A stretch of DNA of 64,000 bases. Origin: Chrysoperla carnea. Taxonomy: Eukaryota > Arthropoda > Insecta > Neuroptera > Chrysopidae. Positions 22,401 to 53,200 of this stretch are shown here, piece after piece (within the stretch, counting starts at the first letter, position 1; each line of letters starts with the position of its first letter). Where the stretch lies: the NCBI RefSeq assembly GCF_905475395.1, contig NC_058342.1:20804640-20868639 (forward strand). Reading direction: 5' to 3'. A program made the position numbers and the translations under genes. Under the pieces are notes generated by a model. That model had not been told where the DNA came from and did no database searches. It saw only the letters and a program-made list of their open reading frames with translations.

Positions 22401-24596
22401 TAGTTTTCAACAATACCAAGAATCGATCGGCTTACATTTAGGAGCCCCCTTACAAGTCCACTCAACCTGACCGCATCAACGACAATAACCGCACACCAAA
22501 CAGACCTAGATAAACAAATTAATTTAAACATAAGCAATAATAGTAATAATATAAGCATAGAAAAAGAAATCGAAGATACAAACACCTGTATTATAACAAA
22601 AGATGACGATATGAACAACGATGTTATGTCACAATTACAATTATACAACGATTTAATAATCGCTAAAGATCAATTAAAATTACAAAATATTATTGGAAGC
22701 GGTGAATTTGGTTTAGTTTATAAAGGTCTATACATGAATACGATACCGGTTGCGATTAAAACGTTAAATAATTATAACAGTGATTCGACGGATCCGACAA
22801 GCACGAGTGACACGAATTCAACAAGTAACGCATTTATTCATGAAGCGAAACTTATGTACAAGTTAAAACATCATTGTATTGTTAAGCTAATCGGATTGAG
22901 TTACGATTCTTTAAATAACACGCTGATGATGGTCCAAGAATTCGTTGAATTTGGTTCCTTGTTAAATTACATGCATTTACAACAACAGCAACCGGATACT
23001 GTGTTAAATACCACACAATTGTATATATGGTGTGCGCAGATTGCATGCGGAATGTTATATTTGGAGCAACAACAGTACGTACATCGAGATCTAGCTGCAC
23101 GAAATGTTTTGGTGGCGTCACGAAATCAAGTGAAAATCAGTGATTTTGGTTTATCACGTACATTTAACAATAATAGTAATTATTATAAAGCGTGTAGTGG
23201 GGGAAAATGGCCCGTGAGATGGTATGCACCTGAATCGTATAATTATGGAAAATTTACACATCAATCGGATGTTTGGAGTTTTGGAATTTTATTGTGGGAA
23301 ATGTTTACGTATGGGCAACAACCGTATGGTGATTTGAAAGGTGTTGAGGTAATGTATAGCCAAATTTGTAAACGAAAATTGGGGAAGATAACACAGTTCC
23401 GATAGAATTTTAATTTTGAATCTCTAGTTAATAAGGTAGTACGAGCGCTTAGGCAAGCTTAGACTTGTGGTTGAAATTATTTGTAATTTATTTTTAACTT
23501 TGATCATGAATTTTATTATAACTTTATAAATGTAGACGAAAAATAAGAATACAATTTTTTGATATCTCTTTTTATAGCCTTGGTTTTCGAAATATGGAAA
23601 CTTTCGATATTTTGAAAATTATTCCAGATATCGAAAAATTTTATTCTTACTTTTCGTCTTACATTGTCAAGTTATAACATAATTCATCAACAAAATTGAA
23701 AATATATATTTTCTAAATTTTTATCCCCACTACCGTGCTCATACATCCTTAATTAGTTGGATCCCTTCATCCCTTTAAGGATGTACCAGGCAATTTTAAA
23801 TAAAAAGCTAATAGAATAAAACAAAACCCTTCTCTCGAACATTCTTTTAACCAGAAGCCTCTAGAACAACCTCAGGGTATAAAAAAAGGCTCTCTCGGCG
23901 ACTTAAATCAGTCTTTCTTGAGAAACCACAGAGTTCGGATCTAAAAAGAAATCAAAGCGAGAATAAATGACATACACAATAAATATTCTAGAGTGTTCTG
24001 ATACTAGAAATTTCCGAATTCGACGATATATAAACAAAATCCAGTGACTTTCCATCAGTCTGATCGTGTTTACAGTCGAGAGAAGATTAATTGAAATTAA
24101 GAGTGAACAGTAATGATACAAATTCAAGTGATTTTGACAAGTGAAAAAGAACGAACTATTTGAATATTCTAGAGGGTTCTGGTACTAGAAATTTCGATAT
24201 TCGACGATATATAGAAATCTATAATATTTACGTTAAAAAATGGAACCTTAATTATTATTTATACCATTAAACATGCGATGTATTTTAACCCGAGCAACGC
24301 CGGGTTTGGCTGCTAGTGTATTTATAAAAATTCTATCGCAACTTTTACTACATATTTTGAATTTATAACAAAATTAATATCAAATGATTGATTTTTAGGT
24401 GATAAAATTAATTGATAATGGACAACGTTTATCAAAGCCCGCACATTGTCCAGACAAAATCTATAAAATAATGTTGGATTGTTGGCAACATGATCCACAA
24501 AAACGTCCCACATTTCAACAGTTATTTGACTTGTTTGCCGCTGAACCTGGTTACATGAACATACAAGAATTAATACATACAGACGATATTAGCTAA
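16495..24596 (+). CDS. shark: Shark-type non-receptor tyrosine kinase (SH2-ankyrin-SH2-kinase), complete
   Basis: Seven exons: 16495-16570, 16650-16790, 17729-18111, 19383-19880, 21210-21350, 22404-23348 and 24399-24596. All have GT-AG borders and total 2382 bases, giving 793 residues. SH2 domain 1 spans about residues 8-95 (WFHNKL; FLVRES with phosphotyrosine-binding Arg36). Ankyrin repeats span about 117-275 (DGQTAAHIA, GCTPLHYA, WVPLHEAA). SH2 domain 2 spans about 296-400 (EEWYHG; TYLVRYS, Arg331). The tyrosine kinase domain spans about 505-785. Its residues are intact: GSGEFG loop 511-516, VAIK Lys532, helix-C Glu560, HRDLAARN Asp642, DFG Asp660, WYAPES. Activation-loop tyrosines lie at about 673-674. 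Family knowledge: in Drosophila, Shark binds ITAM-type receptors such as Draper and acts in engulfment and dorsal closure. A Ser/Thr/Asn-rich stretch (about 534-556) lengthens the beta3-helix C loop. The start is the first ATG before the WF motif. Confidence 0.94.
17041..17259. mobile_element. Tigger/pogo-type MITE in Shark intron 2
   Basis: It starts 'tacagtggaacc' and ends 'ggttcgactgta', so the two ends are inverted and bounded by TA on each side, as in Tc1/mariner/pogo superfamily elements. The inner repeat ('agtgtaattcgg' with 'cctgattactgg') also pairs. The length is about 219 bases with no transposase. Confidence 0.7.
17465..17620 (-). repeat. tRNA-derived SINE (minus orientation) in Shark intron 2
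   Basis: Read on the minus strand, a pol III A-box-like 'tagccgagtgagataag' is followed about 45 bases later by a B-box 'gggttcgaatcc'. A non-tRNA body ('ccgctg' to 'gatcaattta' in reverse sense) then runs to about 17465. The head resembles a tRNA with an extended variable arm. The body recurs at 1-100. Confidence 0.65.
18150..19200. repeat. Two direct copies of a long repeat in Shark intron 3
   Basis: A block at about 18190-18480 ('gactaccgcgatatagcc', 'gttttaattttgtggaacgg', 'tttagcattctataggcaa', 'tattcaaaaatgtcgtatt', 'ctattctgctattcgggg') recurs at about 18850-19130 with the same order. The copies are about 660 bases apart. The 3' side ends near 'gagttataaatggtcgaac' and 'actttcttttatatat', a configuration common at insect retroelement or Helitron tails. 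No coding sequence is evident. Confidence 0.55.
20393..20640 (-). repeat. SINE-like repeat in Shark intron 4
   Basis: On the minus strand a B-box-like 'agtttgattcccggc' near 20600 heads a sequence that ends in 'cctaacctaacc' near 20393. A similar 'cctaacctaacc' tail occurs at about 47955-47968. The A box is less clear, so the assignment as tRNA-derived is moderate. Confidence 0.45.
21650..21820 (+). repeat. Dispersed repeat family A, 3' fragment (Shark intron 5)
   Basis: The stretch 'gaaagatactcttattac' to 'gtaatcaacactgtc' and 'aacaattaactcagtca' matches the 3' part of the copies at 31485-32010 and 35645-36155. The rest of the intron to 22403 shows no recognised feature. Confidence 0.6.
23826..23913 (+). 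promoter_or_regulatory. Heat-shock-type core promoter 1 (HSEs, TATA, initiator)
   Basis: Two three-unit heat shock elements are visible: tCTCt-cGAAc-aTTCt (about 23832-23846) and aGAAg-cCTCt-aGAAc (about 23853-23867), each with one mismatch to alternating nGAAn/nTTCn. A TATA box starts at 23878 (tataaaaaaag) and a TCAGTC initiator lies at 23908-23913. The initiator A is 32 bases from the TATA start, the normal arthropod spacing. The sequence after it ('gaaatcaaagcgagaa') is A-rich like heat-shock leaders. Sense is the same as Shark. Confidence 0.7.
23982..24060 (+). promoter_or_regulatory. Heat-shock-type core promoter 2 (HSEs, TATA, initiator)
   Basis: An HSE aTTCt-aGAGt-gTTCt begins at about 23985, followed by a perfect two-unit aGAAa-tTTCc. 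A TATATAAA box lies at 24027-24034 and a TCAGTC initiator at 24055-24060, with the initiator A 30 bases from the TATA start. The downstream stretch 24070-24160 is an A-rich, unstructured leader-like sequence ('agtgaacagtaatg', 'acaagtgaaaaagaacg'), reminiscent in composition of insect hsp70 leaders. No coding sequence follows it within the element. Confidence 0.7.
24162..24220 (+). promoter_or_regulatory. Third, partial heat-shock promoter copy (HSEs and TATA only)
   Basis: The block repeats the promoter 2 sequence ('atattctagagggttct', 'actagaaatttcgatattcg', 'acgatatata') about 178 bases downstream, with the HSE units retained. No TCAGT initiator follows at the expected distance, so this copy may be broken. 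Confidence 0.55.
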
Positions 24597-44270: not shown

Positions 44271-47200
44271 ATGCATCATCTGTATCCAACAGTGAAAGGT
44301 GATCCATTATGTCCATTAGGTTTTCATCCCCAAGTACGATGGCCAACAAGATGTAAACGTTGTTTTAGGTAAGTCTTAAATTTGTATACAGTGCTAGTGT
44401 GATTGAAAAATGAACTAAAATAAAGTTTTGTCACGTGTTTTGAATTTTTTTAAAGCAATAAAGTTTGGTTGATTTAAATTAACAATTTTAATTTTTTTTT
44501 AAATTTGCATGATAAATTTTACACCTGTTAACATACTTAACATTTTTTGGCAAGTTAAATGAATCGATTGAATATTTGTTTATTTTTGCTTAAAGTCCGG
44601 GTGTTTGAGCAAGTACGGTGAATCATTTTTTTTTTGCGGTAAATGACAGTTTAAAGTTCCTTTTGTGTCCTCTTGCGAGGCTAAATTGTGAATTATTTCA
44701 TTTTAAAATTGTGATTTTTAACACAGTACATTATGGAAGAACTCACAATAATGTCAATTGTTCAAAAATTAATCAGTGACTGAGCTTCAAAATAGTTTAC
44801 ATCATGAAGAAAATTTATCACAGACTCCATTTATGCAAAAAAAACTTTACCATACGGCGCTTTCCAGAAAGAAAACATAAAAAAACTATGGTTTTTGACA
44901 CTTTTACGATATTTTTAGAGAATTTTATTACATTTACGTCATGTAAATTGCCTAGTTGATTGGTTGACTAGTCACGTGACGGCCTATCCACGTTAATTAT
45001 CTTACGAGTACTGTTAGTATCTTTAATGCAGCCCTAAATAATTCTGGGAAGTTTTCAACCTAAACACGCTAAATTAAAACTAACTTATGTAGGTAAAAGT
45101 TTTGACCACTGATTTATATTACGCCCTAAATTTAATTTCCAATAAACACATGATGTTTTTGCTTATAAACAAGAAACTAATAAATAACGTGTTACGAAAT
45201 GAGTATCGCAACTATATTTTTTTCGTCTTTGAAATGAAACATAATTGAATCTATCTTTAAACTTTCAATGATTAATGACTGCTTTAAAAATAGACAGCTG
45301 TTTGAAAAAGTTATCTTAAAATAGTATCTTTTTATGTTTAGGCGAAACCACGCCTCCGATAGATTTTAATTAAAACTATTCGTACATGGATAGAATCTGT
45401 TATTAATTTTCCGACAAAAAATAAACTCGTAAACAGCATAGCTCATTCGCTAAGGTCATATTTCCCCTTCATTAGATGTTTTTTTATTACTATATGCATT
45501 TTATTGAAAAGACTGAAACGGAGGCCGGAAAAACGACACTATCAGAAAGCACTTTCTTAACATTAACTCAATTCTCAGATAAATGTGCAACTTTCTAATT
45601 CAATTTGGCAGACCTTTGGAGGCTGTAGAGGAGTACAAAGATTCAAAAATCATGAAAATCTGTGAAAATTTACCACAAAAAGCGGTAGCGAGGACTGGAA
45701 AGTTGACACCCTCAATAGACTCTTCCTTGACACTAACCCAACCTATATTTCGATTTTCAACTTATTAGTTCAATTTGGAGGGGCTGAAGAGCTGTACATA
45801 GCTATAAAAATGTCGGACAAATCAACCCCTACTTTAATATCATCGATTCGTCTAGTAACCCAGTACACATAACAATTTTAAGCACATTTTCCCTTACGGA
45901 GGCCGTTGGAGATCCCTTATTATATACCTTGTTTCTTCTTGTTTTAGAGATTATAAAGAACATGGAAATAAGAGAAAAGAAGATGAAGATGATTCGATTA
46001 GAAGAACTACCACTAGCAGTAATTTAAGACGAGATGATGTCACAATCTCATCACCAACTTTATCTACATGGAATTCCTCTTTATCATCACGGTAATCTAT
46101 TACAAATAATCGCCAAAACTTAATTACTTTTAGTTTGGCGATACTATAATCAGATTTTGTAGACGAAATATGACGAAATTTTTAGTCGATAAAGTATAGG
46201 CTAGGTTACGTTGCAGAGACTGTCCGTATGGGACACACTGTTGACTTTGGACAACAATTTAGATCAAATCTTGATTCACGGTATACTCAAACCGATAATA
46301 ATTCAAGCCACGATTTTGGACAACTATTTACAATATCTGTTGATTCAAGCCACACCCAAAATGAAAATCAATCAGATTCAAGTTATACTCAAACTAATGG
46401 TTCAACAAAACCATTCCTAGCAAACTTAAAACTAGACCAAATCATCTGTTGTTACCTTTACTGTCATTCCCATTTGTTTTGCCATCACTTCAACGGCAAT
46501 TTTTTCCTGAATGTCTTTATGGAGTTGATCAACTTCATCAAAAACCATAGATTTGTTCTTTTCCCCTTCAAACTCTTTCAAACGATTTGAGCAGCTAAAC
46601 GAAACCATTTATTCAGGTCGCTTTTACAGTGTCTTAAATGAGCTGGTGGAACAAATCAATGTAAACCTGGTATGGGTACCGGGTTCAGGGACATTCTAAG
46701 GAATTTTGAAGTCGGCGAGCTGATTAGAAATGGCACAAGGCTGTTGGGCATGAGTATCAATAGGCTCCCGAGAGTTCTCTTTGTGACTTGAAAGCTGCTT
46801 CCGAATGAGGAAGTTTTAAGAAAGGTCAATCTTAGATGGAAAAGGGAACGCAATTGTAATACTGCAAGACAGATATAGTCGGAGTACAACCATAAGTGTT
46901 CCGAAGATATTATCTTCAAAAAGTCTCTATGTAGGCGAAGAAATAAAGCAATGAACTGTGGATCTTCTGAGCAGTAAGACGGATCGGAACGAAGTTTTTT
47001 GGATTCGATTCGTGAGGGAGTCTACAAACTTTGTGAAGAAAAGTGATGAGAGAAAAATGAAAAACTGGAAACTTAAATATCACAACAAAATAGCCCCCGA
47101 GATATCTGGTACCCAGGGAGCGCAGTATACACCTCCTATCTTGGAGTTTTACGAGAATATGTAACATATTTCATCCCTAGGCGTCCCCCTTTCGTCCGCC

Positions 47201-50200: not shown

Positions 50201-53200
50201 GCGACAAATAATATTGAACGTATTAAACAGTTGGAGAGTGAATTAAGTCAATCGAATAATCAAGTAACGCAATTAAAAGAACAATTACTTAGTACGAATG
50301 ATAAGTTGTTGAAGTTAGAAGCAACTTCGACCAAGAAGAAACCACCGATGCTTGGTAATATTGGTAAATCTGCGTCATCGGGAGCTGTTGAAAATACTGT
50401 CCCAACTGTTGTAAGTTTTTTAATTTCGATGAGATTTCTTTCTAGGGAACTATCATGATAATAATAAAAACAATAATAAAACATAAGGGGGTTACCGCAA
50501 ATAGATCTCTAATCCCTAGACCAAAGGATCCTCTGTGCCTTCCTTGATAGCATCCTATCATTCGAAGGCGAGACGTCTACGAGTAAGAGATGCTATTTTA
50601 AGCAGAAGAAGCTTAATTTCTTCCACGATTGATAGATCCAAGATTTAGGACCCGAACATTCTGAGTCTGACACCCTGCAGATTTCTGCAATTGCAAATAA
50701 AATGTATGGAAGTCTCATCACCCTCCATCCAGATCCTACAAGTGGGATACTCAAAGATCCACATGTTATGAAGCTGGTAGTTCAATCGACAGTGTCTTGC
50801 TAAAAGTCTCACCACCCTTCTCAACTGTCATAGTGAGTTTCAGGCAAGCACAGTCGAATGGTCTAAAGGCATTATGGCTTGTCGTGGCCATTCCTTGATT
50901 CGGTAAATTACGGAGTATCTTACAATGAGAATGGCAAGTTCAGAAATCTTGATGCTACAAGAGCCTGAAGAGCGGTCTATCTGAGAAGATGCTGATATGT
51001 GCTCCACTGCAACCTTTCGTGTTACAGACCTGGACACCTCTCAGCATAGCAAAGATTTTTGATTGGAAAATCGTCACATATTGAAGGTTTTGGGATCGCC
51101 AATTTGGAGGCCTAAAACTCATTGTTTTACCCTGTAATTATGCAACCCATTAACCTCTCATAAACCATCGCCTGAAAATTATCCAGGCTCTTAAGAGAAA
51201 AAAAAATTTATGAGAAAATTTCGGCTCAAAGTTTCTGCATACTTAAATTTATCCAACACCTATTGAATGAAAATTAACTTTTATTTCTTTGTTAATTGAT
51301 TAGAAAATATCGAGAGAATCATTAATTCGAGGAAATTCACAAGATGATCCCGCACAATTAGCTAGAGATTTGCAAGATTCCATTGAGCGTGAAGCTGATT
51401 TACGAGAACAACTTAAATTTGCTGAAGAAGAGGTATCGTATTTTAATTTTATCTATCGTAATGGGACTACAGACCTCTGGAAAAAATATTTCAAAGACCA
51501 AAATCGGCCGAAAAAATTTTTTGTATTCAACGTGAGCTATCCAAATTAACATTGTTTTGATTAACTTGGCCGAATTTGAGATTTTTTAACGTTGAATACT
51601 GAATATTTTGTCTGCAACTCAAGTTTTGGTCGATTTTCTAGCGATTTTTTAGTCGATTTTTTTTCCAGAGATATATAATCCTGTGACCCTTATCCGTATT
51701 CAAGTACGTAGTCAGTGCAGATAAGGGGACTTTGCTTCTTTTAAAATTCTTAGAAACTTTGGAATCAGTTAAAATTTGAATTAAATCTCTCACAAAAAGT
51801 AATTGTGGCTACGAACTTGTAAATATGAACCTCATAACATATACTGGAATTTCGATTAGTCGAATACTTCTGTAAGACGAACAAGACTGACAGCTGTTGT
51901 ACCAAATCTGCAATAATACGGGAATCGTGTTCCCAAAAGACGTAGATTTATGAAGTCTTTTTAGTTAGTCACGTTATACAAAAATTATGAGAGTGAATTT
52001 TTATGATTTGCGCGCACATTACATGTTGAAGTTAGTTACAATTTTTTAATACCATGTAGTTAGTCAATAAACGTAATGTCACTCACAAAGTATCAGGCCG
52101 TAAGTGAGACAATAAATGGCTATGTCTATCTCTGTCGCAAAAGTCGACTCGATGTGCGCAAGTGTCACGAATCTATAATAAGTTAAGTTTGTATACGTTG
52201 TCATACACAAACTCACATTCTCGGACATGCGTACAAGGCTCGCCGTTTTGCAAGAAAGATAGATGGCTAAATGTCTGCACTGTAGGGGTTTCGCTCGGCT
52301 TCAAATCCCCACTAGCATTATTTGAGTTTATATATGGATAACATTCTAAATGTCGTTTATGAACATAAAAGATAGGTTAATTTGTTTACATTATTTATAA
52401 ATTATTATATTTGTAATTACCGAAGAAGTATAACTTTTTACGTGCAAATGTACACACATACTTTTTTTCTTAGTATATTTCCGAGTTGTATTAGTCGGAG
52501 GAAACTCTCGTAAAGTCATATACGAAAGTCTACACAGAATTGTTGTGTCCACGAAAATTTCTCGCTTCCCTTGCAATTTGACTAATCGAAATTCCTTTGA
52601 GATTATTTTAAAATGTCTAATGTTATATGAATTCAGTTCAAAATGCAATTATCTATAATCAAACTACAATATCTTCAACAATACCAGCCAAAACTACAAT
52701 CAACAGTCTCAACAATTACAGAAACAATATCAAAACAACATTTTGGTCAACAATTCAAAATGTCTGTTGATATAAAACACACTCAAACTGACGATAAATT
52801 CAAACAAGATTTTGGTCAACAATTTAAGTCAACTGTTGATTCACATCAATTTACTCAAACTGAGAATTCTAGACAAGACTTTGGACAACAATTTAGATCA
52901 AGTATTGATTCACAGTATACTCAAACCGATAATAATTCTAGCCAAGATTTTGGCCAACAAATAACAATACCTGTTGATTCAAGCCTTACCCAAACTGAGA
53001 ATCAATCAGATTCAAGTTATACTCAAACTGATGATTCAACAAAGTTATTCAGCAAAATTATTCATAGTAAACTTAAAACTAGACCGAATCAACTGTTGTT
53101 ACCTTTACTGTCATTCCCATTTGTTTTGCCATCACTTCAACAGCAAATATTTTCTGGAAGTCTTGATGGAGTTGATCAACTTCAATCAACTTCATCAAAG

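What the first reader, a model, noticed from the sequence alone, without database searches (positions are those of the whole stretch)
23826..24220. Tandem heat-shock-type promoters inside the last intron of Shark
Two complete blocks, each with three-unit HSEs followed by a TATA box and a TCAGTC initiator, have TATA-to-initiator spacing of 32 and 30 bases. A third partial block keeps the HSEs and TATA. Matching three element types at correct order, strand and distance twice over is unlikely by chance. Downstream sequence is A-rich like insect heat-shock leaders, but no heat-shock coding sequence follows. Promoters 2 and 3 share near-identical HSE/TATA blocks about 178 bases apart.
Basis: partly seen in the sequence, partly recalled or inferred. 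Interest (0 to 1): 0.82.

Follow-up and report, generated by a model that had tools for sequence, protein, structure and literature searches.

The report
Heat-shock promoters carried by a Helitron
The stacked heat-shock-type promoters in this gene's last intron are real, but they belong to a copied jumping element (a Helitron) present many times in this genome, and another Helitron there carries a heat-shock-type promoter in front of its own transposase gene.

Summary
In detail: two complete HSE-TATA-TCAGTC modules and a third partial block lie at 23831-24213. No other such module occurs in the 64 kb; shuffles average 0.01. They are not a private Shark promoter. They sit in a 5'-truncated, non-autonomous Helitron, 23805-24316, with a 3' hairpin and CTAG|T end. 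About 85 places in the same 559 Mb genome hold parts of this family (capped lists). Fuller copies (consensus 1.13 kb) carry more HSE arrays. Motif bases are no better conserved among copies than other bases, so inserted copies look unselected. The promoters match six hsp70 upstream pieces and hsp83 only over motif-sized stretches. A different Helitron with a 1,462-residue RepHel frame has a perfect four-unit HSE 18 bases before TATATAAG, 0.44 kb before the RepHel start; 10 of 11 further copies are identical there. Three other RepHel upstreams show no such array. Best reading: some Helitrons here use HSF-type promoters, and the Shark copy is a passenger that may be heat-responsive. In the paper listings I saw, HSE-rich Helitrons are reported for Caenorhabditis only. 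Expression is untested.

The parts
23805..24316 (+). 5'-truncated copy of a non-autonomous Helitron family; fuller copies run about 0.5 kb further 5'
23831..23867 (+). HSEs of promoter block 1 (TCTCTCGAACATTCT and AGAAGCCTCTAGAAC)
23878..23883 (+). TATA box of block 1
23908..23913 (+). TCAGTC initiator of block 1, A+1 at 23910
23937..23942 (+). GGATCT at +28 of block 1, fits the DPE consensus RGWYVT as I recall it; block 2 has no such match
   Evidence: (consensus), read; DPE consensus recalled
23985..24015 (+). HSEs of promoter block 2
24027..24034 (+). TATATAAA of block 2
24055..24060 (+). TCAGTC initiator of block 2, A+1 at 24057
24161..24213 (+). third block: HSEs and TATATA, no initiator here; complete in L041, and in L039 with an altered TATA
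24287..24306 (+). Helitron 3' hairpin (AACCCG...CGGGTT)
24313..24316 (+). Helitron 3' terminus CTAG, followed by T at 24317
23349..24398 (+). last intron of the Shark-type kinase gene; exons end at 23348 and resume at 24399
23432..23761 (.). a second, unrelated repeat in the same intron with inverted arms 23486-23567/23626-23707

Best explanation
The promoters are the internal regulatory part of a non-autonomous Helitron. Shown: the family has hairpin-CTAG|T 3' ends and, where readable, A|TC 5' ends; about 85 places; an HSE-rich body; and two to three HSE-TATA-initiator units. Another Helitron of the same genome has an HSE-TATA promoter before an open RepHel gene. Inferred: HSF bound to these promoters drives, or in the ancestor drove, the Helitron's own RepHel transcript on heat stress; loss of the coding part left promoter-bearing derivatives that were still mobilised through their ends. 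The copy in Shark is a passenger in sense orientation. Its two intact promoters may start heat-dependent transcripts running into the last Shark exon, but nothing indicates host use.
For: Ends: of 36 3' ends read, 28 are CTAG and 33 are followed by T; flanks are unrelated except for two pairs. L016 flanks joined match an unoccupied related repeat in L037 across the junction, 248 of 350 bases. Consensus: 27 HSE units in chains of two or more against a shuffle mean of 6.1, 0 of 2000 reaching it. Modules: 0 of 1000 consensus shuffles reach two. Other Helitron: four-unit HSE score 17.6, the maximum, 0 of 500 shuffles; 1,462-residue RepHel frame without stop; of 11 further copies read, 10 are 100% identical over 192-217 bases of the promoter, five of these ten with the 1,462-residue frame and five with other frame lengths; its 3' end CCCGGGCGAAGCCGGGTTTTTAAGCTAG|T is of the same form as the family's. 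Positive control: of seven hsp upstream pieces, six have HSE scores reached by at most 17 of 500 shuffles. Precedent: C. elegans Helitron1_CE RNA rises on heat shock in an HSF-1-dependent way (PMC6765114, passages).
Against: No expression, HSF-binding or heat data exist here. The Helitron with the HSE promoter before RepHel is another family: its 5' part matches the consensus only over one 19-base HSE. No listed RepHel match lies within 56 kb of a listed family place (family lists capped at 40 scored candidates each), so the true partner was not found. Three other RepHel upstreams (L056, L057, L058) have HSE scores at chance level (352, 334 and 223 of 500 shuffles reach them), though the 5' ends of those elements were not located. 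Motif bases are not conserved above the rest (0.936 against 0.942; 588 of 824 circular shifts do as well). The eleventh copy read (L059) did not show the promoter in the stretch read.
Confidence: 0.72

Rival explanations
1. The Helitron captured the promoter of a host heat-shock gene and spread it.
For: Helitron gene capture is described in insects and other groups (PMC6544945, passages); HSE-TATA-initiator-leader order is that of a heat-shock gene; two to three tandem units.
Against: Only short matches, best E 0.009 to the upstream pieces of nine hsp70 genes (six pieces) and 0.003 to hsp83, in searches with E-values for these few kilobases only. Small hsp, DnaJ and hsp60-type genes were not compared, so capture from one of those is not excluded.
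Confidence: 0.15
2. A host-used alternative, heat-inducible promoter of Shark, domesticated from the element.
For: Sense orientation inside the gene; the motif bases of blocks 1 and 2 equal the consensus apart from one base at the TATA edge.
Against: The window copy is 95.6% identical to the consensus overall, so intact motifs are not surprising; no motif conservation across copies; what lies downstream is only the last 65 codons of the kinase.
Confidence: 0.07
3. Chance motif clustering in A+T-rich repeat DNA, without promoter activity at any time.
For: G+C only 31.8%; single HSE-like sites are common in the window; no expression data.
Against: Shuffle tests; a like architecture before an open RepHel gene in another family.
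Confidence: 0.06

Closest known systems
Helitron-acquired HSEs of Caenorhabditis (Helitron1_CE, HelitronY1_CE; PMC6927752: abstract, sections 8, 9, 12 and passages; PMC6765114: passages)
   Same: Helitrons with dense HSEs, both in autonomous copies (HSEs before RepHel) and in non-autonomous copies scattered near genes.
   Different: Another animal group (taxon here not identified, taken as insect); here also TATA and TCAGTC core-promoter elements in tandem units ('TATA' and 'core promoter' do not occur in the main text of PMC6927752). That paper scanned the metazoan genomes with annotated Helitrons at UCSC and found enrichment only in Caenorhabditis (section 9). HSF-1 binding and heat induction were shown there, not here.
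alpha-beta/gamma heat-shock units at Drosophila 87C (recalled; one search found no paper on them)
   Same: Heat-shock promoters repeated without heat-shock coding sequence.
   Different: There, as I recall, the promoter is homologous to hsp70; here it is not.
hsp70 and hsp83 promoters of the same genome (L048-L054)
   Same: HSEs and TATA boxes upstream of the gene.
   Different: No homology beyond motif-sized stretches.
ONSEN/COPIA78, heat-responsive plant retrotransposons (PMC5059998, search listing with start of abstract only)
   Same: Transposon with heat-responsive elements in its own promoter.
   Different: Plant retrotransposon of the Copia type.

Membership tests
Helitron (canonical type) | 3' terminus CTRR (CTAG) followed by host T | tested here: met
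   28 of 36 ends CTAG, 33 of 36 followed by T; window copy CTAG|T
Helitron (canonical type) | 5' terminus TC after host A | tested here: met
   Of 12 copies whose alignment reaches within 7 bases of the 5' end, a TC start after A can be read in 6 (L011, L016, L025, L029, L037, L044), with more than one possible start in some; in the other 6 the end is an A+T repeat without a readable TC. The window copy lacks its 5' end
Helitron (canonical type) | short hairpin just before the 3' end | tested here: met
   6-pair stem ending 6 bases before CTAG; folds at -6.2 kcal/mol, z -1.45, so only mildly better than shuffles
Helitron (canonical type) | insertion without target-site duplication | tested here: met
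   One empty related site, L037 against L016 flanks, the only one found for six copies tried; 71% identity, so exact only to a few bases
Helitron (canonical type) | RepHel protein (autonomous members only) | tested here: not met
   Non-autonomous: longest stop-to-stop frame 98 residues in the consensus. RepHel genes exist elsewhere in the genome; partner of this family not found
Heat-shock gene promoter | HSE array upstream of TATA with initiator at the right distance | tested here: met
Heat-shock gene promoter | homology to a heat-shock gene promoter of the genome | tested here: not met
   six hsp70 upstream pieces (nine genes) and hsp83; small hsp not tested
Heat-shock gene promoter | HSF binding and heat-dependent transcription | not testable with these tools
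   no expression or ChIP data
HSE-bearing Helitrons as in Caenorhabditis | HSEs upstream of the RepHel gene of an autonomous copy | tested here: met
   L055 and 10 of 11 further copies of that element; not seen for L056, L057, L058. Not shown for the family in the window itself

The most novel reading that the evidence does not exclude
Helitrons outside nematodes have recruited HSF more than once: in this genome two Helitron families with unrelated promoter sequence, one of them with an open RepHel gene and near-identical copies, carry strong HSE-TATA promoters, so heat stress would switch on RepHel and scatter heat-inducible promoters into genes, Shark among them.
Probability: 0.45. Interest if true: 0.78.

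Novelty: new variant of a known kind. Interest (0 to 1): 0.62.

Why it matters
[quoted passage not shown] A second lineage with HSEs both before an open RepHel gene and in many short copies makes it testable whether heat stress mobilises Helitrons more widely, and whether they rewire heat responses by inserting whole core promoters, not only HSF sites. My seven searches of the held open-access library on Helitrons or transposons with heat shock listed no insect case; three of them listed only part of their hits (20 of 31, 20 of 856, 15 of 46), most listed papers were seen as titles and abstract starts only, and most subscription papers are not held.

Tried and rejected
Capture from hsp70 or hsp83: tested, only motif-sized matches. 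Selection on motifs in inserted copies: tested, none seen. Autonomous partner of this very family by its 5' and 3' parts: none within 56 kb of a listed RepHel match (only the best 40 of 106 and of 128 candidates were scored). Relatives in viral contigs by DNA pattern and by the first 374 residues of the RepHel frame: nothing. Small heat-shock genes (PF00011): the one request did not complete and was not repeated. Genome count of the L055 promoter: the requests did not complete; eleven short stretches were read instead. A search with the whole copy L016 did not complete; its 5' part was searched later. The first idea that the unit begins at 23826 was dropped.

Full report
Check of the observation. 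The window was read directly. Two complete modules of HSEs, TATA and TCAGTC lie at 23831-23913 and 23985-24060, and a third block with HSEs and TATATA at 24161-24213. The spacing from TATA to the initiator A is 32 and 30. An HSE matrix of my own weights places the 400-base windows with the most hits over this region. HSE-like sites as such are common in the window (48 with at most one mismatch, 35 expected). A composite test, defined after seeing the sequence, finds the module on both strands at these two places only; 100 dinucleotide shuffles of the window averaged 0.01 modules and none held two. The surrounding gene has ankyrin repeats, SH2 and a tyrosine kinase domain that continues over the intron 23349-24398, as expected for Shark (name by recall of that domain order).

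It is a repeat. The region searched against its own genome (559.5 Mb; the window is on contig C6 of 38.6 Mb) gave 50 matches at 40 distinct places, with 40 of 106 candidates scored (merged). I fetched the other 39 places with flanks. Most alignments begin at or near window 23805 and reach 24317 or a little beyond. In other copies the similarity goes about 0.5 kb further 5', so the window copy is 5'-truncated.

It is a Helitron. Of 12 copies aligned to within 7 bases of the 5' end, 6 show a TC start after A, such as TCTAATATATATA in L016; in the other 6 an A+T repeat hides the end. Of 36 3' ends that could be read, 28 are CTAG and 33 are followed by T, in unrelated flanks except for the pairs L032/L036 and L016/L040. 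A small hairpin precedes the end; its folding energy is only mildly below shuffles (z -1.45). The joined flanks of L016 match an unoccupied, diverged repeat in L037 across the junction (248 of 350 bases). Searches with the 5' part and the 3' part gave 40 places each, again capped. Merged within 3 kb they make 86 places; two elements, near C5:70.42 Mb (L040) and C6:12.98 Mb, are probably counted twice, hence about 85.

Anatomy of the family. A consensus of 1,133 positions came from 22 of the 39 fetched copies; 7 were dropped by hand and 10 lacked one recognisable end. It holds HSE chains at 207-230, 264-283, 599-632, 803-831 and 980-997, TATA at 643 and 844, and initiator A at 675 and 875; 27 HSE units stand in chains of two or more against 6.1 in shuffles, 0 of 2000 reaching it. 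Block 1 has GGATCT at +28, which fits the downstream promoter element consensus as I recall it; block 2 has AGATTA there. L041 has a complete third block and L039 one with an altered TATA, while the other 20 rows have lost parts or all of it, so the unit number seems to change by internal deletion. No frame exceeds 98 residues: the family is non-autonomous. The rows lie about 4 to 9% from the consensus, and motif bases are not better conserved than the rest (0.936 against 0.942; 588 of 824 circular shifts reach the difference). So the promoters were built in the ancestor and decay in the copies.

Source of the promoters. The genome has hsp70 genes in divergent pairs and singly and an hsp83-type gene. 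The upstream pieces of nine hsp70 genes (L048-L053) and of hsp83 (L054) carry HSEs and TATA boxes; in six of these seven pieces the best HSE is reached by at most 17 of 500 shuffles, in L051 by 52. The consensus matches them only over short stretches, best E 0.009 and 0.003. Capture from these genes is therefore not supported. Small heat-shock genes were not reached.

Helitrons with RepHel. The RepHel N-domain PF14214 gives 64 matches at 59 merged places; 11 share one score (197.5 bits), and seven lie in frames of 1,462 residues without stops. Upstream of one of these (L055, C5) the element starts at position 220; a perfect four-unit HSE lies at 553-572, TATATAAG at 591, and the first ATG of the RepHel frame near 1031. 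That HSE has the maximal score, reached by 0 of 500 shuffles. I read the matching 301-base stretch in 11 further copies: 10 are 100% identical over 192-217 bases of the promoter. Of these ten, five have the 1,462-residue frame and five have frames of 566, 1,116, 1,372, 1,467 and 1,528. The eleventh (L059) fell further 3' in a copy with an internal duplication, and is uninformative. Downstream, a Helitron end CCCGGGCGAAGCCGGGTTTTTAAGCTAG|T follows the frame, which makes the element about 5.3 kb long; the middle was not read. Its end is of the same form as that of the family in the window (21 of 28 letters alike by my count), but its promoter region is unrelated in sequence. Against generality: three other RepHel upstreams, L056, L057 and L058, have best HSE scores at chance level, though their elements' 5' ends were not located. 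The other RepHel families were not read.

Mechanism. Shown: the anatomy, the family, the promoter architecture, and its presence before an open RepHel gene of another family. Inferred: HSF drives RepHel on heat stress; deletion derivatives keep the promoters and were mobilised in trans. The Shark copy is a passenger that could start heat-dependent sense transcripts into the last exon. No result here shows transcription.

Comparison. In C. elegans, Helitron1_CE and others carry HSEs, bind HSF-1 and are heat-induced (PMC6765114 passages; PMC6927752 abstract, sections 8, 9, 12 and passages), and Helitrons upstream of one F-box gene affect thermotolerance (PMC12062965 passages). The 2019 survey found enrichment only in Caenorhabditis among genomes with annotated Helitrons, using the HSE pattern printed there. 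The present genome is a separate case with added core-promoter units. I therefore rate it a new variant of a known kind.

Noticed in passing
G000 contig C6: The family is concentrated on C6 (6.9% of the genome): 45 of 86 merged places, and RepHel matches too, 31 of 59. On C6 the family lies mostly at 12-24 Mb and RepHel mostly at 4-13 Mb. Caveat: the DNA lists are capped and their queries came from C6 copies. C6 might be a sex chromosome (guess).
   Followed up: partly
G000:C3:3767553-3809834: Seven PF14214 matches of identical score, five of six steps 5,813-5,815 bases apart, six of seven in open frames of about 720 residues: a head-to-tail array of Helitron-like units, perhaps rolling-circle concatemers.
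   Followed up: no
window 23432-23761: A second repeat with 82-base inverted arms in the same intron; parts recur in L012, L013, L024, L026, L042, L043, L045 and L047.
   Followed up: no
L048, L049, L050: Three divergent hsp70 gene pairs with near-identical inverted upstream arms (99.8% in L048, 92% in L049, 95% in L050), suggesting gene conversion.
   Followed up: no
L057 455-885: The Helitron at C3:1677173 has an upstream frame that reads like an OTU-type protease (by eye, not searched).
   Followed up: no
window 52733-52978: Four direct repeats of 39 bases with a 69-base period, and one more copy at 46306; by eye perhaps coding.
   Followed up: no
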